A stretch of DNA of 64,000 bases, taken from an uncultured Parabacteroides sp. (GTDB lineage Bacteria; Bacteroidota; Bacteroidia; Bacteroidales; Tannerellaceae). The stretch is taken from positions 23,191 through 87,190 of the forward strand of contig CASFXH010000004.1 in assembly GCA_949298575.1 (NCBI GenBank), written 5' to 3'. Below are positions 7,980-63,860 of the stretch, in pieces; the stretch's first letter is position 1; every line of letters starts with the position of its first letter. Position numbers and translations under genes: made by a program. The notes beneath the pieces were generated by a model that worked only from the letters and a program-made list of their open reading frames with translations, had not been told where the DNA came from and searched no databases.

Positions 7980-8145
7980 TCCTGGGCACTTTCGCCCCTT
8001 CGGAAATGAAAAGGCGAGGTGTGCCGGGGATTTCCGCCCCCTCGGAAATGAAAAGGCGAGGTATGCTGGGGACTTCCTCCCCCTCGGAAATGAAAAGACG
8101 AGGTGTGCCGGGGACTCCCTTCCCCTCGGAAACGCGAAGGCGATA
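7980..8145. repeat. Tandem array 1: 42-bp units with alternating inverted arms
   Basis: The word CGGAAA recurs at 8001, 8043, 8085 and 8127, an exact 42-bp period; a degraded fragment precedes it. Each unit has arms CCTCG and CGAGG separated by 12 bp (for example 8040-8044 and 8057-8061), then a ~20-bp linker before the next CCTCG. It lies between divergent genes and is followed by a terminator-like hairpin at 8224-8286. Reading frames that cross it are repetitive (RLFISEG repeated) and lack coding support. Confidence 0.85.
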
Positions 8146-8223
8146 TCGTTTTTTCATTTTTCACAACAAGAAAACTATGAGACGATATCATCTTATCGCT
8201 TTCCTAGGGTAGAATATTAAAAA

Positions 8224-8286
8224 ACGACCTCGTCTTCAGCCTTCCGACCCCTCGGAGGCGCTCGGACGAGGTCGTCTGGGCTTTTT
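8224..8286 (+). terminator. Compound hairpin with T-run upstream of the DUF6261 gene
   Basis: An 11-bp perfect outer stem (ACGACCTCGTC 8224-8234 / GACGAGGTCGT 8265-8275) encloses a second hairpin around CCTTCCGA/TCGGAGG, followed by GGGCTTTTT. It has intrinsic terminator features on the plus strand, yet no plus-strand gene precedes it, so it would end a transcript that starts in or near tandem array 1. Confidence 0.65.
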
Positions 8287-8318
8287 CCCCTCTTCGCATT
8301 TAAATTTTTTAGATGGAG

Positions 8319-8348
8319 TTTGTGTTTTATCGAAATTGATTATCTTCG
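8319..8348 (+). promoter_or_regulatory. Promoter of the DUF6261 gene
   Basis: TTTG at 8319-8322, 18 bp, then TATCTTCG at 8341-8348, close to the Bacteroidetes -33/-7 consensus, 27 bp upstream of the ATG at 8376. Confidence 0.6.
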
Positions 8349-8375
8349 CGAGAGTAAAAAATAAAGTTTTTTCGC

Positions 8376-9197
8376 ATGGAAAGTAGATTCGTAAAAATAA
8401 AGGAACCGGGCCTCGCGAAGCTCAACAACAAGGAATATTCCAATTTCATGACGGAATTCCACGCCTTGGCCTTTCCGGAGGCGAGCGACGACGGCGGGGA
8501 AGACCCCGACGACGGGGGCAGCCCCGGGACCGTAAGTCTCGTGGGGGGCAATCCCGACCTGGGCATCCTGGAAGAAGAGAAAGTGGCCTTCGAAGCCGAT
8601 TTGGAGAAGATCCAAAACTTGGTGGAGCGCACGAAAAAGCGCGAGGAGACCGCCCGGATGAATGAGGTCGACGAGCAGCGGACCACCACGGCGGTGGCTT
8701 TCACCACGATGGTGAAGCAACTCAAGAACATCGCCCTCCCCGCCCAAGCCGAGGCCGTGGAGGAGGTCCACAAACTCTCGGAACCGTATGTCGGCCTGAC
8801 GAAACTGCCTACCGACCAGAAGACGGCGCAGATCGACGGCTTGCTGAAAGACATGTCGGCCGAGGGCGTCGCCCAGAAAGTCGAGACGATGGGCTTGACC
8901 GCGATCCTCAACCAGTTGCGCGAGCAGAACGAGCTTTACCGCGAGCTCTCACGCGCCCGCCGCGAGGCCCGCACCGACGAGGTGACGGAAAGCAGCGACA
9001 CGATCCGCGAGCGGATGAATTTCTACTACGACGAGATGACGACCGCCGCCTTCGTCCAAAGCGCCGCCAACCCGACGGAGACGAACAAGCGTTTCATAGC
9101 CCTCCTCAACACGCTGATCGACGAGACGAAGCAGAAGTACAACCTTCGCAAGGGCATCGCCGAGGCGAACGAGAAGAAGGAGGAGGAGAAAGCTTAA
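8376..9197 (+). CDS. DUF6261 family protein with internal DDGGSPGTV segment
   Basis: A 273-residue, highly charged, mostly helical protein that I recognise as the Bacteroidetes-restricted DUF6261 family; its function is unknown. After a short N-terminal part (LAKLNNKEYSNFMTEFHAL) there is an acidic Gly-rich insert, residues 38-53, ending in DDGGSPGTV (45-53, bases 8508-8534). Long amphipathic helices and a Lys/Glu-rich tail follow. There is no signal peptide or membrane segment. The same nine residues form the C-terminus of the HU-like protein at 37956-38747. The gene has its own promoter and terminator, so it is probably monocistronic. Confidence 0.85.
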   Translation: MESRFVKIKEPGLAKLNNKEYSNFMTEFHALAFPEASDDGGEDPDDGGSPGTVSLVGGNPDLGILEEEKVAFEADLEKIQNLVERTKKREETARMNEVDEQRTTTAVAFTTMVKQLKNIALPAQAEAVEEVHKLSEPYVGLTKLPTDQKTAQIDGLLKDMSAEGVAQKVETMGLTAILNQLREQNELYRELSRARREARTDEVTESSDTIRERMNFYYDEMTTAAFVQSAANPTETNKRFIALLNTLIDETKQKYNLRKGIAEANEKKEEEKA

Positions 9198-9243
9198 GGA
9201 ATTAATGGATTATAGATTTTTCATAATTAGTTTTTCCAATTCA

Positions 9244-9283
9244 GGGAAGGTCTTCTTGCGAAAGAGGGCCTTTCCGCTTTTTT
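9244..9283 (+). terminator. Intrinsic terminator after the DUF6261 gene
   Basis: Imperfect hairpin (GGGAAGG.TCTT / AAGAGGGCCTTTCC) followed by GCTTTTTT, 46 bp after the stop codon. Confidence 0.7.
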
Positions 9284-9332
9284 AAGGCACGAGTATAGAC
9301 AGGCATATCCTATATATATAATAAGGTAAGGC

Positions 9333-10379
9333 ATGAAACAAGAACAAGCGAATGGATTATTACGGCTGAAAACCGTCGCCTTCAACGAGGCGCGCGACGC
9401 GGTGGTCATCCTCGACCAGACCCAACTGCCGCGGCGGGAAAGCTACCTGACGCTGACGACGGCCGAGGACGTCTGGGAGGCCATCAAGCGGTTGAAAGTG
9501 AGGGGCGCCCCCGCCATAGGGATCGCCGCCGCCTATGGGATCGCGATGTGCATGCGCCGCTGGAAAGGCGAGGACCGGGCGGCCTTCCTGGCGGAGTTCG
9601 AGCGGGTAAAAACCTATCTGGGCGGGGCGCGGCCGACGGCGGTCAACCTCACGGCGGCCCTCGAGCGCATGGCGCGGGTCATGCGGCGGCATCCCGACGC
9701 CCCCGTCGACGAGTGGCGCCGCCTCCTGACGGACGAGGCCCTGGCGATCCGGGCCGACGACGCCCAGGCCTGCCGGCGGATCGGCGAGAACGCCCTCGCC
9801 TTCCTTCGCCCCGGCATGGGCCTGCTGACGCATTGCAACGCCGGCCACCTGGCGGTCTCGGAATACGGGACGGCCCTGTCGCCCATCTATTTGGGCCAAG
9901 AGCGAGGCTATGGCTTCAAGGTTTTCGCCGACGAGACCCGCCCCCTGCTGCAAGGCGCCCGGCTGACGGCTTACGAACTCCGCGAGGCGGGCGTCGACGT
10001 GACGCTGATCTGCGACAACATGGCCTCGCTCGTGATGCGGCAGGGCTGGGTGCGGGCCGTGCTGGTCGGCTGCGACCGGGTGGCGGCCAACGGCGACGTG
10101 GCGAACAAGATCGGGACGTCGGGCCTGGCCATCCTGGCCCACCACTACGGTATCCCCTTCTACGTCCTCGGCCCCACCTCGACGATCGATACGCGTTGCG
10201 CGACCGGCGCCGACATCGTCATCGAGGAACGTCAACCCGAGGAGGTTACGGAGATGTGGTATGCCCATCGGATGGCGCCCGAGGGCATTTCGGTCTACAA
10301 CCCGGCCTTCGACGTGACGCCCCACGAGCTGATCCGCGCGATCATCACGGAGGAAGGGGTGTTTTATGAAAATATTTAG
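9333..10379 (+). CDS. mtnA: S-methyl-5-thioribose-1-phosphate isomerase
   Basis: A 348-residue enzyme of the eIF2B-alpha-like isomerase family that converts methylthioribose-1-phosphate to methylthioribulose-1-phosphate in methionine salvage. The family signature RGAPAIG is at 58-64. The catalytic Cys168 (LTHCNAG) and Asp248 (GCDRVAANGDVANKIGT) correspond to the known Cys/Asp pair of MtnA. Length is normal. No other methionine-salvage gene lies nearby, so it could instead act on a related pentose-phosphate, as some MtnA homologues do. The coding strand is very GC-rich with C-ending codons, unlike the ribosomal genes downstream. Confidence 0.93.
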   Translation: MKQEQANGLLRLKTVAFNEARDAVVILDQTQLPRRESYLTLTTAEDVWEAIKRLKVRGAPAIGIAAAYGIAMCMRRWKGEDRAAFLAEFERVKTYLGGARPTAVNLTAALERMARVMRRHPDAPVDEWRRLLTDEALAIRADDAQACRRIGENALAFLRPGMGLLTHCNAGHLAVSEYGTALSPIYLGQERGYGFKVFADETRPLLQGARLTAYELREAGVDVTLICDNMASLVMRQGWVRAVLVGCDRVAANGDVANKIGTSGLAILAHHYGIPFYVLGPTSTIDTRCATGADIVIEERQPEEVTEMWYAHRMAPEGISVYNPAFDVTPHELIRAIITEEGVFYENI

Positions 10380-10386
10380 GGGAAAG

Positions 10387-10418
10387 TTTGGCTAATCCCG
10401 AAACATGCCGTAATTTTG
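10387..10418 (+). promoter_or_regulatory. Promoter of rpsU
   Basis: TTTG at 10387-10390, 20 bp, TAATTTTG at 10411-10418: a full Bacteroidetes-type promoter, 50 bp upstream of the rpsU start. Confidence 0.75.
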
Positions 10419-10467
10419 CCGCTCAAATTTGAGAATAGAATTAACAAATAAAAATAACAACTAAATT

Positions 10468-10659
10468 ATGATCGTAGTACCATTAAAAGAAGGCGAAAAC
10501 ATTGAGAAAGCGCTGAAGAAATTTAAGAGAAAATTCGAGAAAACGGGCATCGTAAAAGAGCTGAGAAACCGCCAGGCGTTCGAGAAACCCTCTGTGTCTA
10601 AGCGGAAACAGCTGATGCACGCGATCTACGTACAGCAATTGCGCCGGGAAGAGGAGTAA
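10468..10659 (+). CDS. rpsU: 30S ribosomal protein bS21
   Basis: A 63-residue basic protein with the bS21 signature (MIVVPLKEGENIEKALKKFKRKFEKTG, read in parts) and a Lys/Arg-rich C-terminus. In Bacteroidetes bS21 takes part in occluding the anti-Shine-Dalgarno sequence of 16S rRNA, which fits the lack of SD motifs before most genes here. It is the first gene of a likely unit with the recombinase and hpf that follow. Confidence 0.96.
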   Translation: MIVVPLKEGENIEKALKKFKRKFEKTGIVKELRNRQAFEKPSVSKRKQLMHAIYVQQLRREEE

Positions 10660-10711
10660 AAAACGCCCGGAAGATTTGCGGGATTGAATTCTTATTCCTA
10701 TTTTCGTCGGC

Positions 10712-11641
10712 ATGAATGCGGTTGACGAAAAAGGACTGGTTGAAGCGTTTCTGAGCTATCTGCGATACGAGCGGAATTACGCCGCGTACACGTTGACGGC
10801 TTACTCGAAAGATCTGGAGCAGTTCGTTCGCTACGTCGAGGAACGCCACGAGGGGCGTTTCGAAGTAGACTTGATCGACGCGGATCTGGTGCGAGCGTGG
10901 TTGGTGACATTGATGGACGAGGGATTTTCGCCCGTATCGGTCAATCGGAAACTAAGTTCTTTGAAGTCTTTTTTTAAGTTCTTGTTGAAGCGAAACGAGA
11001 TTCAAACCAATCCGGCCCGGCTGGTGGTCGGCCCCAAACGGGGGAAACCATTGCCCTGCTTCGTGAAAGACGCGGACATGGAGGCGCTGCTGGACGGGGA
11101 TGGCTTTGAGGACAGTTTCGAGGGAATCCGCGACCGCTTGATCGTGGAGACGCTTTACGACACGGGCATCCGTCGCTCAGAACTGATCGGAATCCGGAAC
11201 CGGGATGTCGATCTCGAGGCGAAAGTGATCCGGGTAGTCGGCAAGCGGAACAAGGAGCGGTTGATCCCCTTCGCGAGCGGCTTGGAAGAATTGATACGAG
11301 CCTACATGACGGCGCGCGACCGGGAAATTGGCGCGGGAAGCGAATGGCTATTTGTGCGACGGGACGGCGAACAATTATCCGCCGGAATTGTTTATAAAGT
11401 AGTCAGGGCCCACTTGTCGTCAATACCGATGCTGCCGAAACGGAGTCCGCACGTATTGAGGCATTCGTTTGCGACGAGTATGCTGAACAATGGCGCGGAG
11501 TTGAACGCGGTCAAGGAACTCCTTGGCCACAGCAGTTTGGCTTCCACCAGCGTTTACACCCATACGACATTTGAAGAATTAAAAAAAGTGTATCATGCTC
11601 ATCCTCGAGCGAAAAAAGACGGAGGTTATTATGGAAATTAG
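10712..11641 (+). CDS. xerC: Tyrosine recombinase, XerC-like
   Basis: A 309-residue tyrosine recombinase with an N-terminal SAM-like DNA-binding domain (residues ~5-95) and a C-terminal catalytic domain. All catalytic residues are present: R154 (TGIRRSE), K178 (VGKRNKERLIP), H247 and R250 (HVLRHSFAT), H273 (LGHSS) and nucleophile Y282 (VYTH). Its conserved housekeeping position between rpsU and hpf indicates the chromosome-dimer-resolving type rather than a mobile-element integrase. Its 3' end overlaps the hpf start by 11 bp, so the two are translationally coupled. Confidence 0.92.
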   Translation: MNAVDEKGLVEAFLSYLRYERNYAAYTLTAYSKDLEQFVRYVEERHEGRFEVDLIDADLVRAWLVTLMDEGFSPVSVNRKLSSLKSFFKFLLKRNEIQTNPARLVVGPKRGKPLPCFVKDADMEALLDGDGFEDSFEGIRDRLIVETLYDTGIRRSELIGIRNRDVDLEAKVIRVVGKRNKERLIPFASGLEELIRAYMTARDREIGAGSEWLFVRRDGEQLSAGIVYKVVRAHLSSIPMLPKRSPHVLRHSFATSMLNNGAELNAVKELLGHSSLASTSVYTHTTFEELKKVYHAHPRAKKDGGYYGN

Positions 11642-11930
11642 AATTCAAGCGATCCATTTCGACGCGACAGAGAGTTTGCAAGCGTTTATCCAGAAGAAGA
11701 TCAGTAAATTGGATCAGTATTTCGATGGAATCATCAAGGCTGAGGTGACGTTGAAAGTCGTCAAGCCCGAGACTTCGATGAACAAAGAAGCGTCGGTCCG
11801 GTTGTTGGTCAGGAACGGGGAATGCTTTTCGGAGAAAATCTGTGACACTTTTGAGGAAGCGATCGATGTTTGCGCGAGCGCTTTGGAGAAACAGTTGATG
11901 AAATTCAAGGAAAAAGCACGTTCCAAATAA
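11631..11930 (+). CDS. hpf: Ribosome hibernation-promoting factor, HPF/RaiA family
   Basis: A 99-residue short-form HPF/YfiA protein (MEIRIQAIHFDATESLQAFI). The family binds the 30S decoding site and inactivates or dimerises ribosomes in stationary phase. The frame is open from 11595, but the ATG at 11631 is preferred because it begins the conserved beta-strand and has a rare clear SD motif (GGAGG at 11621-11625). The start lies inside the end of xerC. There is no C-terminal long-form dimerisation domain. Confidence 0.93.
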   Translation: MEIRIQAIHFDATESLQAFIQKKISKLDQYFDGIIKAEVTLKVVKPETSMNKEASVRLLVRNGECFSEKICDTFEEAIDVCASALEKQLMKFKEKARSK

Positions 11931-11946
11931 AAAAAGTAGCGGATAT

Positions 11947-11977
11947 TTTGGTGCATAAAAAATAATGCCTACATTTG
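11947..11977 (+). promoter_or_regulatory. Promoter of the tRNA-tuf cluster
   Basis: TTTG at 11947-11950, 19 bp, TACATTTG at 11970-11977, 43 bp upstream of the first tRNA. This is probably the main promoter for the tRNA-tuf transcript. Confidence 0.78.
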
Positions 11978-12020
11978 CACCCGTTTCAGCTAGGCGGCAG
12001 GGACGGGTGCTTTAAATGAC

Positions 12021-12094
12021 GCCTCTTTAGCTCAGCTGGCCAGAGCACGTGATTTGTAATCTCGGGGTCGTTGGTTCGAATCCGACAAGAGGCT
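12021..12094 (+). tRNA. tRNA-Thr (anticodon TGT)
   Basis: A 74-nt cloverleaf. The acceptor arms GCCTCTT and AAGAGGC pair perfectly, the anticodon loop is TTTGTAA, and the T-loop is GGTTCGAATCC. The CCA end is not encoded. Confidence 0.95.
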
Positions 12095-12133
12095 CTGAAA
12101 AGAAAGTTTGTTGACATATTTATTAATAATGAA

Positions 12134-12216
12134 GGGCAGTTACCAGAGTGGCCAAATGGGGCAGACTGTAAATCTGCTGGCTCTTGCCTTCGGTGGTTCG
12201 AATCCATCACTGCCCA
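12134..12216 (+). tRNA. tRNA-Tyr (anticodon GTA)
   Basis: An 83-nt class II tRNA with a long variable arm. Acceptor arms are GGGCAGT and ACTGCCC, and the anticodon loop is CTGTAAA. Confidence 0.95.
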
Positions 12217-12262
12217 CGAGACGCGAAGCGGTCGCTCGACCGGTAGCCTTCGTGTTGGGAAT

Positions 12263-12334
<72 letters not shown>

Positions 12335-12386
12335 CGGATTTGAGAGAGAATAAGATCATTAATCAAAAATAAAGAACAATTAAGTT

Positions 12387-13574: not shown

Positions 13575-13593
13575 TTCAAAAAGATGATAGGAG

Positions 13594-25844: not shown

Positions 25845-25911
25845 CAGGCTCCCGTAGTATGGCGCTATTTTGAAACCGTCTTTATTATCAGGCAGATAGG
25901 TGTATCCCAAA

Positions 25912-26030
25912 GTGTCCCGCGGACACATACGTAAGTGTCCGGTCGACACATTCGAATGTGTCCAGGGGAGAGATACGTATGTGTCCGAGGGACACATACG
26001 TAAGTGTCTCCCGGACACTTTAGAATGTCT
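25912..26030. repeat. Tandem array 2: 23-bp units with alternating inverted arms
   Basis: GTGTCC/T recurs at 25912, 25935, 25958, 25981 and 26004, an exact 23-bp period. In most units GTGTCC pairs with GGACAC (3-nt loop), and a TACGTA palindrome lies between the pairs, so two dyads occur per unit. The array fills the gap between the convergent patatin and TonB receptor genes; the last unit ends in GTCTTTTT and could act as a terminator for the patatin gene. Confidence 0.85.
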
Positions 26031-37955: not shown

Positions 37956-38747
37956 ATGAGTGACAACACATCTTACGTTTGGAAATTCGATCTCGAAGAG
38001 TACGCGATGACGAAAGACAACGGCGAGGACTACACCGCCAAAGTGAGCACAATCCAATCCATGAGTATTGACGCGATCGCGAGGGCAATCGCCGCCGAGC
38101 GGACGGAGTACCGCGAGCGGACGATCGTCAACATCGCGCACCTGATCGACGAGAAAATCAGGCACTTCGTCTGCCAAGGCAACACCGTCGTCACGGGCAC
38201 CGCCCTCTACTCACCTTCCATCGAAGGCGTCTTTATCGGAAAATCAGGCGAGGTCGACCCCGATCGAAACCGCTGCATGATCAACATCTCACCCTCCCAA
38301 GCCATGCGCGATGAGCTGAAGAAGGTCAAACCCGTCTTCTCAGGCTTCGTGAAAGACATGGGAGGCGCCCGGATCGCGCTGGTCACCGACACGTCGACCG
38401 GCCTCACCGACGGCACCATCACCCCGGGAGACATCCTCATCGTCACCGGAAAGAAGATCAAGTGCCTCAACGCCGACGGTTCGGGCATCGGGAAAGTCAG
38501 CTTCGTCAACACCGAGACGCAAGCCGAGACGACCGTCGCCAGCCTCGCCGTCAACGATCCCAGCAAACTGATGTTCATCGCCCCCGCGTCTCTCACCGAC
38601 GGGACCTATCTCCTGCGCATAGAAACGTATTTCAGCACGAACGCCACGCTTCTGAAGAAAGTCCGCGTGCTGGAATACAGTACGCCACTGGTGGTTGGCG
38701 ACGTAGAAGAAGACGAGGACGACGGAGGCTCTCCGGGCACGGTTTAA
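37956..38747 (+). CDS. HU-like DNA-binding protein with DUF4469-type C-terminal domain
   Basis: A 263-residue protein. Residues ~1-125 match the Bacteroidetes HU/IHF-like DNA-binding domain (TAKVSTIQSMSIDAIARAIA; ETV-like beta arms around GEVDPDRNRCMINISPS). Residues ~130-245 form a DUF4469-type Ig-like domain (GDILIVTGKKIKC, YLLRIETYFS). The tail EEDEDDGGSPGTV ends the protein; its last nine residues are identical to an internal segment of the DUF6261 protein at 8376-9197. It has its own promoter, and tandem array 3 plus a terminator lie in its 3' untranslated region. It probably has an architectural nucleoid role; the DNA target is unknown. Confidence 0.87.
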   Translation: MSDNTSYVWKFDLEEYAMTKDNGEDYTAKVSTIQSMSIDAIARAIAAERTEYRERTIVNIAHLIDEKIRHFVCQGNTVVTGTALYSPSIEGVFIGKSGEVDPDRNRCMINISPSQAMRDELKKVKPVFSGFVKDMGGARIALVTDTSTGLTDGTITPGDILIVTGKKIKCLNADGSGIGKVSFVNTETQAETTVASLAVNDPSKLMFIAPASLTDGTYLLRIETYFSTNATLLKKVRVLEYSTPLVVGDVEEDEDDGGSPGTV

Positions 38748-38758
38748 GACACGATTTT

Positions 38759-38912
38759 GTTCGACCCGATCGAACCGCTCGGTTCGACTCGATCGAACGC
38801 TTCGGTTCGATCGGATCGAACGCTTCGGTTCGATCGGGTCGAACGCTTCGGTTCGATCAGGTCGAACGCTTCGGTTCGATCGGGTCGAACGCTTCGGTTC
38901 GATCGGATCGAA
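38759..38912. repeat. Tandem array 3: 23-bp units with alternating inverted arms
   Basis: GGTTCGA recurs at 38781, 38804, 38827, 38850, 38873 and 38896, an exact 23-bp period. Arms TCGAAC and GTTCGA alternate, separated by about 5-6 bp in both directions, so each unit holds two dyads about one helical turn apart. It starts 11 bp after the HU-like stop codon and precedes the terminator at 38935-38969, so it is presumably transcribed as a 3' UTR. Confidence 0.9.
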
Positions 38913-38934: not shown

Positions 38935-38969
38935 GGCGATTGGTTCGCTACCAGTCGCCCGTTTTTTTT
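38935..38969 (+). terminator. Intrinsic terminator after tandem array 3
   Basis: A 10-bp stem with one G-U pair (GGCGATTGGT / ACCAGTCGCC), a 5-nt loop, then CG and eight T residues. It is the likely end of the HU-like transcript. Confidence 0.85.
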
Positions 38970-50568: not shown

Positions 50569-50570
50569 CG

Positions 50571-50612
50571 AGCCGCCCGGAGAGAGGGGAACCTTTCCGG
50601 GCGGCTTTTTTT
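50571..50612 (+). terminator. Terminator of the tRNA-Gln pair
   Basis: A 10-bp GC-rich stem (GCCGCCCGGA / TCCGGGCGGC) followed by seven T residues. Confidence 0.92.
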
Positions 50613-50653
50613 ATCGCGAGCTTGGCGAGGGGGCGTTTCCGCTTGGGATTTCT

Positions 50654-50996
50654 TCTCGACGTCGTCGAGATGTTTTCGCGGGCTTACGATTTCTTCTCGA
50701 CGTCGTCGAGACGTTTTCGCGGGCTTACGATTTCATCTCGACGCCATCGAGGCATTTTCCAGACAAAAAATTTTATCTCGACGCCGTCGAGGCATTTTCG
50801 CGAGCTTACAATTTCATCTCGACGCCATCGAGGCATTTTCGCGACAAAAAATTTTATCTCGACGTCGTCGAGGCATTTTCGCGAGCTTACAATTTCATCT
50901 CGACGCCATCGAGGCATTTTCGCGACAAGAAATTTTATCTCGATGCCGTCGAGGCATTTTCCCGGCTGAAAATTTTATCTCGACGGCGAAAAGACA
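50654..50996. repeat. Tandem array 4: 40/41-bp units with palindromic cores
   Basis: TCTCGA recurs at 50654, 50695, 50736, 50776, 50817, 50857, 50898, 50938 and 50978, nine units of 40 or 41 bp. The core is CTCGA, 5 bp, TCGAG, usually followed by GCATTTT. From the third unit the linkers alternate between two versions (AGCTTACAATTTCA-like and ACAAAAAATTTTA-like), giving an 81-bp higher-order repeat. It lies between the tRNA-Gln terminator and the 3' end of the esterase gene, so it may be that gene's 3' UTR. Open frames across it (up to 165 codons) are artefacts of the repeat. Confidence 0.92.
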
Positions 50997-51001: not shown

Positions 51002-52111
51002 TTACTTGAAAAGTCTTGGCGCTAGGTTGTAAAGGTCGTGTCGCCAGACGTACCAGGAATGGCCGCCGGGCATTTCGCTGTACTCGTAGCGAATTCCCGC
51101 CGCGTCGAACAGTTTCAGCATGGCCTTGCAATTGTTGTAGGCGATATCCTCGGGGCCTCCTTGCGTGAACGCCAGAACCTTGACCGACTTGTTGAACTCT
51201 TCGGCGATTTGTTTCAGGTAAGCGCCGCGTTCCTCGTAGACGGCCTTGTTGTCGGCGAACCAGCCGGAGCTGAGCACCCAGAGGTAGCCGAATGAGCGGA
51301 AATTGTTCAATCCAGCCTCGAGCGTTTCCAGTCCGCCCATCGAGAGGCCCGCCAGCGCCCGGTGGTCCTTGTCGGCGATCACGCGATAATTGCTTTCGAT
51401 AAAGGGGATGATGTCATTCATCAGGTCTTTCGCGAACAGCGGCACTTCGCCTTCAAGGGAAGACGTATGGATCGTCCCGTTGGGCATGACGACGATCATG
51501 GGTTCGATTTTTCCTTCAGCCAAGAGGTTGTCGAGGATGAAACCGGCCGCCCCGATCGTTGGCCAGGCGTTATCGGTGTCGCCCCCGCCGTGGATCAGGT
51601 AGAGCACGGGGAGCGATTCGGCGCTTTTCTCGTATCCTGGTGGGGTCCAGATGTGCATCCGGCGTGTCTCGTTCAGCGATTTGGAGAAATAATACCGTTG
51701 GGCGATGGCGCCGTGGGGCACGTTCTTGATGGCGAAGAATTCGTCGCCCGTCGATTCGAGCCGCATGATCGCGGAGGTTTCCGAGGCCGTTTCCCCAATG
51801 GGGTCGTAGACTTTTACGCCATCCACCACGAAATGATAGCGATAGAGCCCGTCCTTGACGTTCGGGACGACGGCCGTCCAGACGCCCGATTCGGAGCGAA
51901 CGGCCTCTTGGCGCGGAAAGATATCGCCACCGATGGTTACTTTTTTCGCCTCGGGCGCGTAAATGCTGAGGGCGACGCCCTGGTTGGCCGTTCGCCGGAC
52001 GGATTGGAGCGTGTCGTTGGGTGTGGGTACGCGTTGCCATTGAGCCGAGAGGGGCGCGCCGCCGGTCATGAGACCCAGCACGCAGAGGGTAAGAATCTTT
52101 TTGATTTTCAT
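51002..52111 (-). CDS. Secreted CE1-like esterase with N-terminal CBM48-like domain
   Basis: A 369-residue exported alpha/beta-hydrolase. After the signal peptide (to ~23) comes an Ig-like CBM48/E-set domain (residues ~35-125) and an esterase-D-like catalytic domain. The nucleophile is S257 (AGLSMGG), the His is H351 (GGHSWYVWR), and the oxyanion segment is LIHGGGDTDNAW. Family members remove feruloyl or acetyl groups from hemicellulose. It follows the glycogen phosphorylase gene after a terminator, so it is probably expressed separately. Confidence 0.92.
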   Translation of the reverse strand: MKIKKILTLCVLGLMTGGAPLSAQWQRVPTPNDTLQSVRRTANQGVALSIYAPEAKKVTIGGDIFPRQEAVRSESGVWTAVVPNVKDGLYRYHFVVDGVKVYDPIGETASETSAIMRLESTGDEFFAIKNVPHGAIAQRYYFSKSLNETRRMHIWTPPGYEKSAESLPVLYLIHGGGDTDNAWPTIGAAGFILDNLLAEGKIEPMIVVMPNGTIHTSSLEGEVPLFAKDLMNDIIPFIESNYRVIADKDHRALAGLSMGGLETLEAGLNNFRSFGYLWVLSSGWFADNKAVYEERGAYLKQIAEEFNKSVKVLAFTQGGPEDIAYNNCKAMLKLFDAAGIRYEYSEMPGGHSWYVWRHDLYNLAPRLFK

Positions 52112-57608: not shown

Positions 57609-58400
57609 ATGGCAGGAGACTTACGTGTCAGTATGGTGCAGTCCCACATCATTTGGGGCGACCGGGAAGAAAATTTGGCTTATTATGAGGAGTTGGTCCG
57701 GCGCTTGGAAGGCCGTTCGGACTTGGCGGTATTGCCGGAGACGTTCACGACGGGATTCGCGATTGAGGACGCCGAGCGCTTGGCTGAGCCGATGGATGGA
57801 CCGACCTTGAAAGCCCTGAAACGCTGGGCCGAACAGTATGGTTTCGCGATCACGGGCAGTTTTATCGCTCAAGAGGGGGCACGATGTTATAACCGGGCCT
57901 TTTTCGTGACGCCCGAGGGAGAGGCTTATTTTTATGATAAACGCCATTTATTCCGAATGGCGGGCGAGGATAAGCGTTTTTCCGCAGGTGAGAAACGCTT
58001 GATCGTTTTGTATAAAGGCTGGAAGGTCTGTCTGATGGTTTGCTATGACCTGCGTTTTCCTGTCTGGAGCCGGAACCGGGGAGGCGAGGAGTATGACCTC
58101 TTGATTTATGTGGCTAACTGGCCAGACGCTCGGCGTAAGGCTTGGAAATCGCTCTTGCAAGCCCGAGCGATCGAAAATATGGCCTATGTCTGTGGTGTCA
58201 ACCGGGTTGGAATGGATGGCAACGGTGTTTACTTCCATGGAGATTCGCTGCTTTATGACCCCAAGGGAAAAAAGATTGCCGACGTGGGGAAACGAGAGGA
58301 GATCACTCGCACTTGTCTGCTGAGTCGAACGGACTTGGTCGCTTTCCGAGAAAAATTCCCTGCCTGGAAGGATGCCGATGAGTTCGAGATTCGTGTTTAA
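57609..58400 (+). CDS. Omega-amidase/nitrilase-family amidohydrolase
   Basis: A 263-residue C-N hydrolase close to YafV/omega-amidase. The Glu-Lys-Cys triad is complete: E44 (LPETFTTGF), K111 (YDKRHLF) and C145 (MVCYDLRFP). Such enzymes hydrolyse alpha-ketoglutaramate in metabolite repair; other small amides are possible. The next gene begins 17 bp downstream, so they may form an operon. Confidence 0.93.
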   Translation: MAGDLRVSMVQSHIIWGDREENLAYYEELVRRLEGRSDLAVLPETFTTGFAIEDAERLAEPMDGPTLKALKRWAEQYGFAITGSFIAQEGARCYNRAFFVTPEGEAYFYDKRHLFRMAGEDKRFSAGEKRLIVLYKGWKVCLMVCYDLRFPVWSRNRGGEEYDLLIYVANWPDARRKAWKSLLQARAIENMAYVCGVNRVGMDGNGVYFHGDSLLYDPKGKKIADVGKREEITRTCLLSRTDLVAFREKFPAWKDADEFEIRV

Positions 58401-58417
58401 CCTATTGAGTCGAATGA

Positions 58418-59674
58418 ATGATGGAAAAACAACAACCTTGGCGCTGGATACCTACGCTCTATTTCGCGGAGGGGTTGCCTTATGTCGTCGTGATGACGCT
58501 CTCGGTCATCCTTTATAAACGGATGGAGGTCTCGAACGCGGAGATCGCATTATATACGAGCTGGCTTTATTTCCCTTGGGTCATTAAGCCCATTTGGAGT
58601 CCTTTCGTGGATTTGATCAAAACGAAGCGCTGGTGGGTCGTTGCCATGCAGCTCTTGATTGGCGCGGGAATGGCCGGAGTCGCTTTCACTTTGCCGGGTG
58701 ACGCTTTCTTGCGGGCTACGCTGGCTTTCTTTTGGTTGATGGCATTTAGCTCAGCGACACATGATATTGCCGCGGATGGTTTCTATATGTTGGGCTTAAC
58801 GGAAGACCAACAGGCCTTCTTTATAGGTATTCGTAATACGTTTTACCGGGTGGCGATGTTGACAGGACAAGGTTTGCTGGTCATGCTCGCGGGCTTCCTG
58901 GAGGAAAAGACGGGGCGGGTACCTTTCGCTTGGAGCTTGGTTTTCTTCGTTTTGGCGGGAACATTCATTGGATTGGCGTTGTGGCACAAGCATGCGATGC
59001 CGCTCCCGTCGGCCGATCGTAGGCGGGCCGATGTCCGTCCATGGACGATTTTGAAAGGCTTTGGCGACACGTTTGTCTCTTTCTTCCGGAAACCGGGGAT
59101 CGGTATGGCCTTGCTCTTTATGCTGACTTATCGCTTGGGGGAATCGCAACTGGTGAAATTGGCCTCACCCTTTTTGCTCGACAGCCCGGAAGCCGGTGGT
59201 TTAGGTCTCTCGACGGGTCAGGTGGGGTTCGCCTATGGCACGGTGGGGGTGATCGCCTTGTTGCTGGGCGGGATCCTGGGCGGTATGGCGCTTTCGAAAG
59301 GAGGCTTGCGGCGGTGGCTTTGGCCCATGGCGCTCGCCATCTCTCTGCCCAACTTGGTTTATCTTTATCTCGCTTATGTCCAACCTGAAAGCGTGTTCTT
59401 GATTAACGCGTGCGTGGCGATCGAGCAATTTGGCTATGGCTTTGGTTTCACGGCTTATACAATGTATCTGATCCTTTTCTCCGAGGGCGAATACAAGACC
59501 GCCCATTACGCCATCTGTACGGGCTTCATGGCTCTGGGTATGATGCTTCCCGGCATGATCTCCGGATGGATTCAAGAGATGATAGGTTATCAGTATTTCT
59601 TTATTTGGGTGATGGTCTGCTGTGTGCCTCTTTTCGTGATCTTGCCTTTCCTTAAAGTGAAAGAACGGTCATAG
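58418..59674 (+). CDS. AmpG-like MFS permease
   Basis: A 418-residue, 12-helix major facilitator. The N-terminus (WRWIPTLYFAEGLPYVVVM) and TSWLYFPWVIKPIWSPFVD are characteristic of AmpG-type muropeptide transporters, and ATHDIAADGFYM is also typical. It probably imports GlcNAc-anhydroMurNAc peptides for wall recycling. Two ATGs occur in tandem (58418, 58421). It lies downstream of the omega-amidase. Confidence 0.9.
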   Translation: MMEKQQPWRWIPTLYFAEGLPYVVVMTLSVILYKRMEVSNAEIALYTSWLYFPWVIKPIWSPFVDLIKTKRWWVVAMQLLIGAGMAGVAFTLPGDAFLRATLAFFWLMAFSSATHDIAADGFYMLGLTEDQQAFFIGIRNTFYRVAMLTGQGLLVMLAGFLEEKTGRVPFAWSLVFFVLAGTFIGLALWHKHAMPLPSADRRRADVRPWTILKGFGDTFVSFFRKPGIGMALLFMLTYRLGESQLVKLASPFLLDSPEAGGLGLSTGQVGFAYGTVGVIALLLGGILGGMALSKGGLRRWLWPMALAISLPNLVYLYLAYVQPESVFLINACVAIEQFGYGFGFTAYTMYLILFSEGEYKTAHYAICTGFMALGMMLPGMISGWIQEMIGYQYFFIWVMVCCVPLFVILPFLKVKERS

Positions 59675-59686
59675 GAATCGCCGGTG

Positions 59687-61561
59687 TCAGTAACGATGGT
59701 AGGGCTCCGACATCACATGGAGGGTTTTAGGGATCCAAACCCGATAGCGCCCTTCTGGGGCCCAATCGTTGCCGGCCGAGGCGAAGTCGCAAAAATTGAC
59801 CATCTTTATCGCTTTATTTTCCTCATTCTCTAAGTCTGTTCCCAAGATCATGGGGACTTGGAGCGTGATCCAGGCGAACGGGGCACTGGCGTTTTCGGGA
59901 GTAGCCTCAATAAAGCCTTGCGGGTCGCGTTGGATGATCGCGCATTCGTCGATGTCGCCATCCTGGAAACGGCTGTCGCGGGCGAAGACCAACGGACCGT
60001 AGGTGACCGCTTGCGTGTGGTTAAGTTCAACGACCCGTGCCTTGGGCTTGAAGTCAATCGCGACTTGGTCGCCTTTCTTCCAGAGGCGTGTGAGGATGAG
60101 GTAACCTCCTCGGTAGAGTGATTCCGTGCGTTCGCCGTTGATAGTGACTTCATAATCCTCGTCAGCCCATGAGGGGATACGGAGCGCGAGGGCGAAAGTC
60201 GAATTCTTTTGGGGATCGAGTGTCAGGTCTATTTTCCCATCAAGCGGGTAGCGTGTTCGTGATGTCAAGGAGACCTTGTTTCGGTTGCCCAGCGTGATTG
60301 TCGCCGCCGAGGGCAGATAAAGGTTCACGAAAAGATGTGTGTCATCCGATTGGTAAGCCACGGATGGAATCAGGGCGAATCCCCTGGGACCATTGGCGTT
60401 GCAGCAGTTGACGCGCATGCCGCATTGCTTCTCGCCCGGTTGGCGTCGTCCTTCGAGCGGGCTGTATTTGGAGATTTGCGAGCCGTCGTCTTTCATGGAG
60501 GCCATGAGAGCGTTGTACATGGTCTGTTCGAACGCCTCGGCATAGAGGGGATTGGCGGTTTCCCTCAGCAGGCGGGCGCAGAATTGCATCCACGTGAAGG
60601 TGACGCAGGTCTCCATCGTATGGTAGGCGGGGTAGGTCTGAAGCGCCTTACCTCCATACCAGCACTCGAACGCGGCCCCCGAACCCGCGATGTTGATTTC
60701 TTCTTTCAGGATATGGTCCGCCGTTTTCCGGGCGGCTTCCAAGAGTAGGGGATCGTCTAGTTCTTTTCCTAATTCGATCAAGCCTTCGTAACACGACATC
60801 ATTTCGTAGGCTTTTTGACCGTTCTCAAAAGACCACCATTGTTGGGGATAAGGTGAGCGTTGGGCGACGGGAACATCCCGTAGAGCTTGGCTGATCAGTC
60901 TTGAACTACCTGCCTGCTCCATGTTTTTGACGATCTCCCGGGCAAAATCCAGATAGTGGTCGTTCCGTGTCGCACGATAGAGGTAAACGACCGGCTCAAG
61001 GATGGAACAGCTGGCCATGCCCAAATAGTTACCGGTGGTGGCGATGTCGACGTTGCGTTCCTTCAGCTCGTCCATCAAGCAATCGATCGAGCGTTGGGCG
61101 GCCTCGAGGGCGTTTTTGTCATTCGTCAGCCGGTAATAGTCCAAAAGGGCGAGGGCGGAATATTTTCGTCCCCAAATGTCCCAGTTGGTCAGCCGGTCTT
61201 CCGGTTTGTAATTGCCGATGTACCCGTCTGGACGCTGGGTTTGGAGGAATTTTTCCATACTGTTTTGAATGAGCTGGAACAGTTCCGGGTCGGCGCTGTA
61301 ACGGTAGGAGGCGATAGCGCCCAACATCCACTTGCCGAAAAACTCCGATTGCCATAGGTTCCCTTCGGTCAGGTAGCGGAAAGGTTCGATCAATTCGTTC
61401 ACGTCCTGTCCCTTGACCCGTTTATCGATGCAGGTTTGGATCCGTTCGCCGATGAATCCATCAATGTGGATGGACTCGAGATGGGGATTCACGACTTGCG
61501 CCGAGGAGCCCGCCGTGATGGCAAGCAAGCTCAATACTAACCAACAGCCCTTGATTTTCAT
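59687..61561 (-). CDS. GH127-family glycoside hydrolase (beta-L-arabinofuranosidase-like)
   Basis: A 624-residue exported (alpha/alpha)6-barrel glycosidase with a signal peptide (to ~21). The zinc and catalytic set of GH127 is present: E317 and C319 in METC, and C386-C387 in NCCNANGP, one of which is the cysteine nucleophile. A C-terminal beta-sandwich follows. Members release beta-L-arabinofuranose from plant hydroxyproline-rich glycoproteins or act on related sugars. No other glycan-utilisation genes surround it, so the substrate remains open. Confidence 0.92.
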   Translation of the reverse strand: MKIKGCWLVLSLLAITAGSSAQVVNPHLESIHIDGFIGERIQTCIDKRVKGQDVNELIEPFRYLTEGNLWQSEFFGKWMLGAIASYRYSADPELFQLIQNSMEKFLQTQRPDGYIGNYKPEDRLTNWDIWGRKYSALALLDYYRLTNDKNALEAAQRSIDCLMDELKERNVDIATTGNYLGMASCSILEPVVYLYRATRNDHYLDFAREIVKNMEQAGSSRLISQALRDVPVAQRSPYPQQWWSFENGQKAYEMMSCYEGLIELGKELDDPLLLEAARKTADHILKEEINIAGSGAAFECWYGGKALQTYPAYHTMETCVTFTWMQFCARLLRETANPLYAEAFEQTMYNALMASMKDDGSQISKYSPLEGRRQPGEKQCGMRVNCCNANGPRGFALIPSVAYQSDDTHLFVNLYLPSAATITLGNRNKVSLTSRTRYPLDGKIDLTLDPQKNSTFALALRIPSWADEDYEVTINGERTESLYRGGYLILTRLWKKGDQVAIDFKPKARVVELNHTQAVTYGPLVFARDSRFQDGDIDECAIIQRDPQGFIEATPENASAPFAWITLQVPMILGTDLENEENKAIKMVNFCDFASAGNDWAPEGRYRVWIPKTLHVMSEPYHRY

Positions 61562-61699
61562 GGATATCTATTTTTGCTTTTCTTTTATGTGTGGATACGT
61601 ACGCAAAAATAGGAATTAAAGTTCGAATTCTTTTATGCGTGCCGAACATTTCTTTCGCGCCTCGGAAGCTACTTTCTAATCATTGTATATCCGTTACTA

Positions 61700-61759
61700 C
61701 CGCGACTTCGGTGCTGGCGTCTACACTGTCCGTGTAGCGTCAGCGTGACGAAGGCGCGG
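61700..61759. other. Large hairpin after the FadL-like porin gene
   Basis: The outer stem is CCGCGACTTCG / CGAAGGCGCGG (one mismatch). Inside is a second long stem, GCTGGCGTCTACAC / GTGTAGCGTCAGC, with one bulge and one mismatch. It begins 6 bp after the porin stop on the minus strand; no clear U-run follows, so it may be a mRNA 3' stabiliser or a REP-like element. Confidence 0.65.
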
Positions 61760-61764
61760 GTTGC

Positions 61765-63249
61765 TTAGAATTTATAAGAAACGCCGATGGCCGGCATCAG
61801 GGCATAGGCCGAGTAATGGCCGCTGAAGACGCGGGTCTTGTATTCGTCGGCCACGTTCGGGATCGCTTTCATCAACATATACTCGTCGGTGTAAGAGCCG
61901 TCGCGGGAGATGCCCTGCACGTAGCCGAACGAGAAATCTACCGAGAAATTCTTGAGGGGATAGAAGCTGCATCCGGCCGTGATGCCTACCTTATCCATGC
62001 TGGGCGTCTCGGGGTTCAAGTAGTCGCGCTCGACGGGTGACTCATCGAAATAGGCGCCCATACGGACATCGAGCCGGTCGGTCGCCGCGAACTCCGCGCC
62101 GAGGCGGTAGATGCGTGAGTTCTTGTATTTCTTGGGGGCATAAATGTTGTAAGCGCTCAGCGACGAGGGCGAAAAATGCACGTCAAGCGCCTCATAAGCG
62201 CCCCAGCCTACGAATTGGACCTCGCCCGAGAGCGTCCACCGTGCGGTGGGATGGTAGGCGATACCCACGTTGAGGTTGCTGGGCAAGGGCAGCTCGGCCG
62301 AGAAGTTGCCCGTGTTGAGCGGGGGAATGCCGATGCCACTGGGCAGGCCGTTCCCTTCAGGCAGGAGCTGTCCGGCGGTCTGGAGCAGGGTATTGATTTT
62401 GCCGACCAGTTGGTTGAAATGTTCCTCGTTGGCGTAGTTCAGGGCGATGTCGCCTTCTTTCACCTTGGCGGTCACTTTCGAACGGTAGGAGATGCCGACG
62501 GTCAGCTTGTCGTTGATGTCGAACATGGCGCCGACATTGAATCCCAATCGTACTCCCGCGTTGCCCTTCAGGGAGACGGAAGCCGCCGACGCGTCGTCAT
62601 AAATCGCCATTTCCTGTATGATCGGCTCCATGACCGGTTGCAACATGGGGAGCATTTGGGGATATTGGGTGGCGATGGCTTGCGTCATGTAATTGGCCAT
62701 GTAAGTCATCTCGCCCGGCCCGATCAAGGCGCGACTCATGGAGATATTGCCAAACATCATCATCAGCCCGGCGCCGATGCTCAGCCGGTCGGTGATGCGC
62801 CAAGAGAGGGTGGGCTGGATGTTAAAGGCCTTCAAGGAAATGTCTTGCACGAGGTGCGAGCCGGCCCAATCGTCGCTCCATTTGATGCCGCTCCCATAGG
62901 GCGTGTTGATCGAGAGGCCGGCGGCCAGGAAATCGTAGATCTTGAAGCCGGCGTAGGCGTAGAGGGGCGTGCTTGGCGTGTTGTCGGTGCTCTGCTTGAA
63001 ACCATTGCCTTCAACCGTCGCGTAGGCGAAGACACCCGAGAGACCCGCGGAGAGGTCGACCGTCTTATCCATAAACGCCAGTCCCGCGGGGTTGAAGTGC
63101 ATGCTTTCCGCGCCGAGTTTCAGGGCGACGCCCACGTGGCCCATGCCGGCTTGTTTCGCGCTTTGCGCGTTGACTTGAAATCCCTCGGCAGCCGCGTAGG
63201 AGAGAGGGAGCGTGGCCAAGCAGGCCAGCGCGAGTACTTTTTTCATCAT
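61765..63249 (-). CDS. FadL/OmpP1-family outer membrane protein
   Basis: A 494-residue outer membrane beta-barrel of the FadL/TodX transport family. A signal peptide (ending AAAEG) is followed by FQVNAQSAKQAGMGHVGVAL and SMHFNPAGLA, matching the family hatch NPA motif. The C-terminal residue is Phe (GVSYKF), an outer-membrane insertion signal. The family imports hydrophobic compounds such as long-chain fatty acids. A TATCTTCG element at 63310-63317 on the minus strand is a likely promoter. Confidence 0.92.
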   Translation of the reverse strand: MMKKVLALACLATLPLSYAAAEGFQVNAQSAKQAGMGHVGVALKLGAESMHFNPAGLAFMDKTVDLSAGLSGVFAYATVEGNGFKQSTDNTPSTPLYAYAGFKIYDFLAAGLSINTPYGSGIKWSDDWAGSHLVQDISLKAFNIQPTLSWRITDRLSIGAGLMMMFGNISMSRALIGPGEMTYMANYMTQAIATQYPQMLPMLQPVMEPIIQEMAIYDDASAASVSLKGNAGVRLGFNVGAMFDINDKLTVGISYRSKVTAKVKEGDIALNYANEEHFNQLVGKINTLLQTAGQLLPEGNGLPSGIGIPPLNTGNFSAELPLPSNLNVGIAYHPTARWTLSGEVQFVGWGAYEALDVHFSPSSLSAYNIYAPKKYKNSRIYRLGAEFAATDRLDVRMGAYFDESPVERDYLNPETPSMDKVGITAGCSFYPLKNFSVDFSFGYVQGISRDGSYTDEYMLMKAIPNVADEYKTRVFSGHYSAYALMPAIGVSYKF

Positions 63250-63309
63250 ATTATGCTCTATTTGTTTGTAATGAGTTAATTAGATAATTGTTCCCTTCAG
63301 AAACGGCCG

Positions 63310-63317
63310 CGAAGATA
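63310..63317 (-). promoter_or_regulatory. -7 element (TATCTTCG) of the FadL-like gene
   Basis: Near match to TAnnTTTG on the minus strand, about 60 bp upstream of the ATG; possible -33 TTTG at 63333-63336 with a short 15-bp spacer. Confidence 0.45.
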
Positions 63318-63506
63318 AGGACTTATTTGGAACAAACGCGCAAAAGGTTGGAAAATGCGCGAAAAATCATTCTTCTTTTTGCGAGGGGTATGAGGCGTTT
63401 TTAGGGCAATTGTCCATAGCCTTATCATAGGATTGACGAGATAAGTATTTAATATTCAATTGGAATTAGCCCTATTCCTGACGAAATGGAATTGTCCAAG
63501 GGAAAA

Positions 63507-63538
63507 TTTGCGAGGCCTATTTCTTTAAAATACCTTTG
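63507..63538 (+). promoter_or_regulatory. Strong promoter at the right end
   Basis: TTTG at 63507-63510, 20 bp, exact TACCTTTG at 63531-63538: consensus-quality. The word AATTGTCCA occurs twice upstream (63408-63416 and 63490-63498), and the first copy sits in the near-palindrome GGGCAATTGTCC, which could be an operator. Confidence 0.75.
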
Positions 63539-63568
63539 CGCTATCAAAAATTAAAAACAAAAAGTATC

Positions 63569-63709
63569 ATGACGAAACACGAGATGAAAAGAAAGAGCCA
63601 TCCATGGCTTGGGGTAATGTGCCTACGGGCATGTAGTTTTATGTGGGCGCCAAATCTAATGGCGAGCCAAGTGAAAAATGGAAATCAATATTTCAATAAA
63701 ATAAGTTAA
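63569..63709 (+). CDS. 46-codon ORF resembling a truncated signal peptide
   Basis: The first ORF after the strong promoter (31 bp downstream of the -7 box) encodes 46 residues: MTKHEMKRKSHPWLGVMC at the start, a hydrophobic stretch, then APNLMASQ and a polar tail ending NKIS. The basic-hydrophobic-small-residue pattern looks like a signal peptide whose mature protein is missing. It may be a leader peptide or the 5' remnant of a decayed outer-membrane protein gene. Protein-level evidence is absent. Confidence 0.4.
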   Translation: MTKHEMKRKSHPWLGVMCLRACSFMWAPNLMASQVKNGNQYFNKIS

Positions 63710-63783
63710 GTTTATTGTTAAACCTATATTCAACCCGTCTTCATGGATACCACAAAACCCTCTTGATAAAGAGGCATTTGACT

Positions 63784-63860
63784 TAATAGTCACACGAGGC
63801 CCTCGTAATAGTCACACGAGCTCCTCTTAATAGTCAGATGAGGCCCTCGTAATAGTCACA
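63784..63860. repeat. Tandem array 5: 22-bp units with alternating inverted arms
   Basis: TAATAGT recurs at 63784, 63806, 63828 and 63850, an exact 22-bp period. Arms ACGAG and CTCGT pair across 3 bp (63794-63798 / 63802-63806) and again across the linker into the next unit. A 6-bp hairpin (CCTCTT / AAGAGG, 63759-63774) lies just upstream. The array precedes the secreted-protein gene starting at 63936. Confidence 0.85.

What the first reader, a model, noticed from the sequence alone, without database searches (positions are those of the whole stretch)
7980..63860. Five unrelated-sequence tandem arrays share one architecture
Arrays at 7980-8145 (42 bp), 25912-26030 (23 bp), 38759-38912 (23 bp), 50654-50996 (40/41 bp) and 63784-63860 (22 bp) have no common sequence, yet each is a run of short inverted arms in head-to-head alternation at fixed spacing: CCTCG/CGAGG, GTGTCC/GGACAC, TCGAAC/GTTCGA, CTCGA/TCGAG, ACGAG/CTCGT. 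All are intergenic. Every unit can form a hairpin, and in the 22-23 bp arrays neighbouring arms can pair in either direction, with dyads about one DNA turn apart. Five such arrays in 64 kb suggest a genome-wide class made by one process (replication slippage at palindromes, or a dedicated activity) or serving one role (mRNA 3'-end stabilisers, cruciform or protein-binding sites).
Basis: partly seen in the sequence, partly recalled or inferred. Interest (0 to 1): 0.78.

Follow-up and report, generated by a model that had tools for sequence, protein, structure and literature searches.

The report
Private DNA arrays beside HU-protein genes
Short palindromic tandem repeats between the genes of this gut bacterium come in two sizes, and those with 21-24 base units often sit, with a different sequence each time, right beside genes for an expanded family of HU-like DNA-binding proteins, which suggests that each such protein has its own private set of DNA landing sites.

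Summary
The five arrays are real and belong to a genome-wide class in a Parabacteroides genome: 54 arrays in 744 kb, none in 3.72 Mb simulated. Of 174 arrays, mostly from Tannerellaceae, 87 have 21-24 bp units (S), 84 have 40-43 bp (L), 3 other. Inverted arms exceed shuffles overall, not in window array 1. In two S families most variable dyad positions do not covary, so hairpins are unlikely to be what is selected there.

Main result: S arrays flank HU-superfamily genes. 21 of 23 PF14848 genes have one, 16 of them 5-80 bp after the stop, window array 3 included; 22 of 39 PF18291 genes; other genes 102 of 1025. Named Parabacteroides, Bacteroides and Phocaeicola records gave 3 of 3 and 10 of 14, against 0 of 77 control genes. 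Paralogues in one genome almost never share an array; some orthologues do.

I infer private recognition arrays; binding is untested. Most other S arrays of this genome match no HU-adjacent array (0 of 18 in unselected stretches). L arrays have no known partner. Porphyromonas 22/23/41-nt repeats are the closest precedent.

The parts
7984..8143 (.). Array 1, L class: 42-bp unit x3.8, between an ADP-ribosylglycohydrolase gene (7111-7923 -) and a DUF6261 gene (8376-9197 +)
   Evidence: TRF; genes; inverted arms not above shuffles
25909..26018 (.). Array 2, S class: 23-bp unit x4.7 (GTGTCC family), between convergent patatin and TonB-receptor genes; relative of the array upstream of an HU-HIG gene at G000:C8:24292-24666
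37956..38747 (+). HU-superfamily gene: HU-DNA_bdg (PF14848, 88.3 bits) plus DUF4469 (PF14734), 263 aa; sequence relative of PDB 4fmr (uncharacterized)
   Evidence: Pfam; PDB sequence search
38935..38959 (+). Intrinsic-terminator-like hairpin with T run downstream of array 3, separate from it
   Evidence: consensus scan
50570..50607 (+). Intrinsic-terminator-like hairpin between tRNA-Gln and array 4, separate from it
   Evidence: consensus scan; tRNA
50648..50985 (.). Array 4, L class: 40/41-bp unit, about 8 copies (CTCGA family), 16 bp from the 3' end of the esterase gene 51002-52111 (-)
63784..63860 (.). Array 5, S-class length: 22-bp unit x3.5, 534 bp from an OMPP1/FadL gene on the left, contig end on the right; no match to any HU-adjacent array held

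Best explanation
The arrays are two things. S class (21-24 bp units; 2-7 copies, median 4, beside HU genes): at least those beside HU genes are recognition arrays for HU-superfamily DNA-binding proteins of the PF14848 (HU-DNA_bdg/DUF4469) and PF18291 (HU-HIG) families. Each paralogue has its own dyad sequence, repeated at about two helical turns. One array lies by the gene (5-80 bp after the stop for most PF14848 genes, mostly 20-130 bp upstream for HU-HIG genes), and relatives of some of these arrays are dispersed in other spacers, window array 2 being one. Dimers would bind neighbouring dyads side by side, build a nucleoprotein patch, set the level of their own gene and act at the dispersed sites. 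Shown: the adjacency, its placement, the different sequences, dispersed relatives for some, no arm covariation in most variable positions of two families. Inferred: that the neighbouring protein is what binds, that binding is paralogue-specific, any regulatory effect, and the extension to S arrays without a known partner. L class (40-43 bp): often two dyads about 21 bp apart, mostly near stop codons, no partner gene found; function unresolved, perhaps sites of another dimeric protein or 3'-end structures.
For: Adjacency: PF14848 genes 21 of 23 with a 22-24 bp array, 16 downstream at 5-80 bp and 5 upstream at 55-84 bp; HU-HIG 21 of 38 within 300 bp, 22 of 39 within 330 bp with L036 added; ordinary genes 102 of 1025, Fisher p 1e-18 and 5e-12. 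Four of these loci (window, L022, L299, L036) suggested the idea; without them 19 of 21 and 20 of 37. Out of sample: best place in every record hit by two tblastn searches of named records (3 of 3 and 14 of 16 places fetched): 3 of 3 and 10 of 14 at strict settings, against 0 of 77 annotated genes in 100 kb from two of the records. Unselected loci: a Tannerella sp. PF14848 gene (L181) with a 23-bp array 25 bp after the stop, and one in G019 (L240) with one 165 bp upstream. Four multi-locus S families that I followed have a member beside an HU gene: GTGTCC in G000 and G024, CAAAACATATATG in G012, G013 and G018, AAAACTAAG (21 places) in G009, TCGAAC in G000 and G018. Array likeness follows protein likeness: 0 of 303 same-family pairs under 30% identity or unaligned, 0 of 462 between-family pairs, 7 of 138 above 30%. 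Paralogues of at least 50% identity in one genome share an array in 0 of 8 pairs (1 of 12 at 45%), across genomes in 4 of 10. L arrays match an HU-adjacent array in 0 of 67. Fixed half-site positions and variable positions without covariation. Arms less variable than linkers in 139 of 168 arrays. In the published table for Porphyromonas gingivalis, BrickBuilt_14 (23-nt repeats) lies beside a PF00216 DNA-binding gene.
Against: No binding data. 17 of 39 HU-HIG genes have no array at these settings (9 of 13 under 155 aa, 6 of 24 longer, 2 not measured); 4 of 14 in the named records need lax settings, which also flag 6 of 77 control genes. In G000, where all 8 HU-HIG matches and all 7 PF14848 genes over the cut-off were examined, 22 of 30 S arrays away from HU genes match no HU-adjacent array; in its unselected stretches 0 of 18 match one of its own, and the 7 that do lie in the window or in stretches chosen for array hits. 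So most S arrays there have no known partner. G024 is better (3 of 8 in unselected stretches). 20 ORFs flanking 12 of the 21 G009 arrays show no common function, so no regulon is visible. 6 of 10 cross-genome pairs with at least 50% identity do not share an array. GTGTCC pair 8-11 covaries fully. The S unit, mean about 22.5 bp by my arithmetic, is not an exact multiple of 10.5.
Confidence: 0.57

Rival explanations
1. The arrays are minisatellites carried in small non-autonomous mobile elements (as proposed for BrickBuilt and MITE464 of P. gingivalis); HU genes are merely common hosts or cargo.
For: P. gingivalis repeats have the same unit lengths and IS5-like terminal repeats. The G009 family has 21 places; the 12 read have the same build, with consensus reaching about 50-60 bp beyond the core on both sides. 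Positions turn over between sister species. Most G000 S arrays have no HU partner.
Against: Random insertion does not place a different array 5-80 bp behind 16 of 23 PF14848 genes or upstream of 10 of 14 HU-HIG genes in other species. Duplicated cassettes would share arrays between close paralogues; an 82% identical pair does not. No Y1 transposase (PF01797) match in G000. Terminal repeats and target-site duplications were not tested here.
Confidence: 0.24
2. Hairpins in RNA (3'-end stabilisers, attenuators) or DNA cruciforms are what is selected.
For: Inverted arms exceed shuffles. Arrays lean to 3' ends: L 31 of 52 within 60 bp of a stop and 20 of 28 codirectional ones nearer the 3' end, S 15 of 40 and 19 of 25. 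One CTCGA pair and one GTGTCC pair covary. Pooled within-array double changes lie at the edge of the shuffles.
Against: No covariation in the G009 family; within-array excess not significant when the classes are separated; mismatch preferred at GTGTCC pair 6-13; no consistent excess of G.U-type over A.C-type changes on the sense strand (56 to 72; S 16 to 7, L 40 to 64). Separate terminator-like hairpins lie beside arrays 3 and 4.
Confidence: 0.13
3. Neutral slippage at chance palindromes, no function.
For: Copy number varies, positions turn over, units within an array are alike.
Against: Two narrow unit lengths with a gap from 25 to 39 bp in 174 arrays, arms more conserved than linkers, and the placement by HU genes.
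Confidence: 0.03

Closest known systems
BrickBuilt and MITE464/PgRS of Porphyromonas gingivalis (Klein et al. 2015, PMC4596501; abstract, sections 5, 7 part 1 of 2, 8, and passages seen)
   Same: Intergenic tandem repeats of 23 nt and 41 nt, in around 10-20 element copies, able to fold, unrelated in sequence to each other; 22, 23 and 41 nt repeats reported in W83. BrickBuilt_14 lies beside a PF00216 gene.
   Different: There treated as repeats within IS5-like MITEs of one species. Here many sequence groups (125 by shared 8-mers) with the same two unit lengths, and the S class tied to PF14848/PF18291 genes; the parts of the paper that I saw do not draw that link.
P. gingivalis HU PG0121 and the 77-bp inverted repeat of the capsule locus (PMC3969353; abstract, outline and passages seen)
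   Same: An HU-family protein, encoded beside an operon whose 5' end has an inverted repeat that it binds preferentially over a non-specific 77-mer.
   Different: A single inverted repeat and an E. coli-like HU that binds many DNA structures; no paralogue-specific arrays.
Iterons and initiator proteins of plasmids (recalled, no call)
   Same: Tandem sites of about two helical turns beside the gene of the protein that binds them.
   Different: Direct repeats for replication initiators; here dyads beside HU-like genes, with no replication function shown.
REP/BIME elements with RAYT (recalled, no call)
   Same: Dispersed intergenic palindromes in clusters.
   Different: No Y1_Tnp match in G000; the associated gene is HU-like.

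Membership tests
HU superfamily (PF14848/PF18291) for the partner genes | Match to the curated profile above its cut-off | tested here: met
   Window gene 88.3 bits against 30; HU-HIG L035 60.2 against 26.2; over the cut-off in 4 of 5 genomes (PF14848) and 6 of 6 (PF18291). Genes of the named records were assigned by tblastn only
HU superfamily (PF14848/PF18291) for the partner genes | HU fold and dimeric DNA binding | not testable with these tools
   Structure prediction was not accepted; sequence relative 4fmr is uncharacterized
BrickBuilt-type MITE | 21-24 bp tandem dyads, intergenic, dispersed | tested here: met
BrickBuilt-type MITE | Terminal inverted repeats of IS5 type, target-site duplication, leader and tail | not tested
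   Only the flanks of 12 G009 loci were inspected: symmetric consensus to about 50-60 bp, ends not defined
REP/BIME with RAYT | Y1 transposase in the genome | tested here: not met
   PF01797: 0 matches in G000; 8 of 37 genomes of the genus have one
Intrinsic terminator / RNA hairpin | Compensatory change between arms | tested here: inconclusive
   Absent in the G009 family, not significant within arrays by class but at the edge when pooled, present at one pair each of the CTCGA and GTGTCC families
Operator array of a dimeric DNA-binding protein | Fixed half-site positions and free positions without pair covariation | tested here: met
   48 units from 12 of 21 G009 places; partly in GTGTCC
Operator array of a dimeric DNA-binding protein | Binding by the neighbouring protein | not testable with these tools
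   needs EMSA, DAP-seq or ChIP-seq

The most novel reading that the evidence does not exclude
Bacteroidales keep a large set of orthogonal addressing systems: dozens of HU-like paralogues, each specific for a private tandem-dyad array that lies by its own gene and at scattered chromosomal sites, so that a protein class known for non-specific binding has become a fast-diversifying family of sequence-specific nucleoid proteins, possibly marking or insulating chromosomal segments.
Probability: 0.37. Interest if true: 0.88.

Novelty: new variant of a known kind. Interest (0 to 1): 0.8.

Why it matters
PF14848 and HU-HIG genes are numerous in these bacteria (25 and 54 matches in G018), and the one related solved structure found for PF14848 is labelled uncharacterized. 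The arrays give a direct handle: for most of the genes examined a candidate binding site can be read off the neighbouring spacer, so specificity, autoregulation and the role of dispersed copies become testable one protein at a time. It would also help to explain why intergenic minisatellites in this group have unrelated sequences but two fixed unit lengths.

Tried and rejected
RAYT/REP origin: no PF01797 match in G000. One helical-phase rule for both classes: 41-42 bp fits four B-DNA turns, 22-24 bp does not fit two (arithmetic). RNA hairpin: the G.U against A.C test gave no consistent sign; on the plus strand of the sources G.T changes exceed A.C changes (S 32 arrays to 9, L 39 to 23), which I cannot explain. 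Positional conservation between sister species: near chance, with one retained pair, beside 78% identical HU-HIG genes. A regulon for the G009 family: not seen. A partner gene for the L class: 20 adjacent genes, no shared family. A specificity region in close PF14848 paralogues: differences are spread out. Other families of the order: in 275 kb of readable sequence from 15 families, two arrays pass the strict TRF threshold, one of 18 bp (L231) and one of 21 bp (L290) (one search listed none after merging, the print was cut short); neither was examined for arms or gene context.

Limits: gene calls are crude codon-scored ORFs except in the named records. The 30 HU-HIG loci are the best five from each of six genomes, 30 of 123 matches. 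23 PF14848 loci of 61 matches were examined: all 7 over the cut-off in G000, all 4 in G024, the top 5 in G009, the top 6 and one more in G018. Two of the 21 arrays (L345, L350) have only 2.3 and 2.0 copies; L355 of the named set has 2.0. Six G000 and eight G024 stretches were chosen for array hits; they are outside the 54-in-744-kb figure but inside the 174. Some arrays are counted twice in the 174 (L140 and L236, L147 and L079 are the same loci). The dyads were picked by likeness to a motif. Control stretches cover B. finegoldii and P. distasonis, not Phocaeicola. No strain pairs were available.
Full report
The observation. TRF finds the five arrays at the stated coordinates. The window lies in a 3.05-Mb genome of 88 contigs; by its FtsH protein the closest named records are uncultured Parabacteroides, Candidatus Parabacteroides intestinigallinarum and P. 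distasonis. The window and 34 stretches of 20 kb not chosen for arrays hold 54 arrays (period 12-130, at least 2.5 copies, score at least 80) in 744 kb; five order-2 Markov simulations of the same sequence, 3.72 Mb in all, hold none.

Two length classes. Of 174 arrays from this genome, the sister G024, G013, G018, 80 named ftsH loci and 40 further stretches, 87 have units of 21-24 bp, 84 of 40-43 bp and 3 of 83-106 bp; none lie at 25-39 (some loci chosen for arrays, a few counted twice). Sequences are diverse: 168 distinct consensus units fall into 125 groups by shared 8-mers. Both classes have inverted arms above shuffles on average. In 28 of 84 long units two dyads lie at least 19.5 bp apart, against at most 9 in shuffles, or 12 with the first dyad kept. 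Arm positions vary less than other positions between copies: 6.1% against 14.3% in S, 7.0% against 11.7% in L.

Not orphans. Arrays 2, 3 and 4 have relatives elsewhere in the genome and in congeners. In G009 one 21-bp family occurs at 21 places; the 12 that I read each have four 19-bp dyads and nearly the same ends. Arrays coincide at 4 of 52 orthologous gene ends of G000 and G024, about chance.

Pairing or sequence? In the 48 dyads of 12 G009 loci the AAAAC and GTTTT ends and one inner pair are almost fixed, while positions 6-14, 7-13 and 9-11 vary independently (paired in 22, 37 and 27 of 48, null means 23.6, 38.0 and 25.3). In 38 GTGTCC dyads pair 6-13 is paired in only 8, fewer than in nearly all shuffles, while pair 8-11 is always paired, more than in any. 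In the L-class CTCGA family one pair of eight covaries (48 of 55, null max 45). Within arrays double pair changes do not exceed shuffles significantly by class; pooled they lie at the edge (53, null mean 42.3, max 53). On balance the S pattern is that of sites read by a protein.

The partner. Window array 3 starts 11 bp behind a gene with HU-DNA_bdg and DUF4469 domains. The GTGTCC arrays of G000 contig 8 and G024 contig 11 both lie upstream of HU-HIG genes that are 78% identical. These loci gave the idea. All 8 HU-HIG matches of G000 and the best five from each of six genomes (30 of 123 matches) gave an S array within 300 bp in 21 of 38, or 22 of 39 within 330 bp with the G024 gene added. Of 23 PF14848 genes 21 had one: 16 start 5-80 bp behind the stop, 5 lie 55-84 bp upstream; the other two (L347, L349) show dyads behind the stop by eye only. 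Without the four loci that gave the idea the counts are 20 of 37 and 19 of 21. Control genes: 102 of 1025.

Prediction tested. Two tblastn searches of plasmid-labelled named records hit 3 and 14 records; the best place in each was fetched (two records had a second place that I did not fetch). All 3 P. distasonis PF14848-type genes, one of them annotated as two CDS, have 23-bp arrays 5-19 bp behind the stop. 10 of 14 HU-HIG-type genes of P. distasonis, Bacteroides finegoldii and Phocaeicola massiliensis have 21-22 bp arrays 37-194 bp upstream at strict settings, all 14 at lax ones. In 100 kb of two of these records 0 of 77 annotated genes have one at strict settings, 6 at lax ones. In unselected stretches an HMM search found a Tannerella sp. 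PF14848 gene with its array 25 bp behind the stop (L181) and one in G019 with an array 165 bp upstream (L240), besides L126 already counted; L117 had none by TRF though dyads are visible behind the stop, L114 ran off the stretch, and the T. forsythia HU-HIG gene (two strains) had none.

Specificity. HU-adjacent arrays have units of 21-24 bp, median 4 copies, and arms above shuffles, 6.4 pairs against 3.9, p<=0.05 in 24 of 43. Array likeness is confined to related proteins: 0 of 765 pairs that are under 30% identical, unaligned or of different families, 7 of 138 others. Paralogues of at least 50% identity in one genome share no array (0 of 8; 1 of 12 at 45%), pairs across genomes do in 4 of 10. 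S arrays away from HU genes match an HU-adjacent array of their own genome in 7 of 30 in G000, 4 of 22 in G024 (plus 4 of the GTGTCC family, whose own HU-adjacent copy was not in that database), 2 of 2 in G009, 1 of 4 in G013, 0 of 4 in G005 and 0 of 2 in G018; L arrays in 0 of 67. Against the reading: in the unselected G000 stretches the figure is 0 of 18, and in the unselected G024 stretches 3 of 8. So the link is firm from gene to array but only partial from array to gene.

The L class. It lies close to stop codons (31 of 52 within 60 bp; 20 of 28 codirectional ones nearer the 3' end, p 0.036). S arrays lean the same way, less closely (15 of 40; 19 of 25, p 0.015). Twenty genes next to L arrays share no family. 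I leave its function open.

Literature. Klein et al. 2015 (PMC4596501, parts named above) describe 23-nt BrickBuilt and 41-nt MITE464 repeats in P. gingivalis and cite 22-, 23- and 41-nt repeats in W83; their Table 1 puts BrickBuilt_14 beside PGN_0872, a PF00216 DNA-binding gene. PMC5771137 was seen in passages only, PMC3969353 in abstract, outline and passages. No paper linking such arrays to HU-HIG or PF14848 genes came up in the listings; the library holds open-licence papers only. An earlier bioinformatic description of HU-HIG proteins is recalled, not seen.

Noticed in passing
L277-L288 (G009): The 21-bp x4 core is embedded in a symmetric element: consensus extends about 50-60 bp on both sides with AAACTT and CCGA stretches in opposite orientation.
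   Followed up: partly
L265 and L266 (G012, G013): A 96-bp stretch holding the array is identical between two species while the flanks differ at what look, by eye, like third codon positions.
   Followed up: no
L074, L076, L077 (G000) and L083, L085, L094 (G024): S arrays that match the array beside an HU-family gene of the same genome; candidates for target sites of those proteins.
   Followed up: partly
G000 S arrays in L068, L125, L130, L134, L136, L075, L065: S arrays with no HU-adjacent relative in this genome; a third HU family such as PF00216 was not searched.
   Followed up: no
all arrays: Single arm changes give G.T more often than A.C on the plus strand of the sources (S: 32 arrays to 9), without a consistent sense-strand sign.
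   Followed up: no
L369 (NZ_OY725757.1): A record labelled circular plasmid of P. distasonis carries core genes (era, der, rpmF, truB) and looks like a chromosome piece.
   Followed up: no
G013 and G018 stretches: Period-7 repeats are frequent in the loose TRF list (12 in 400 kb) although longer arrays are rare there.
   Followed up: no
window 8220-8285: A strong hairpin with T runs on both sides, by eye, looks like a bidirectional terminator next to array 1.
   Followed up: no
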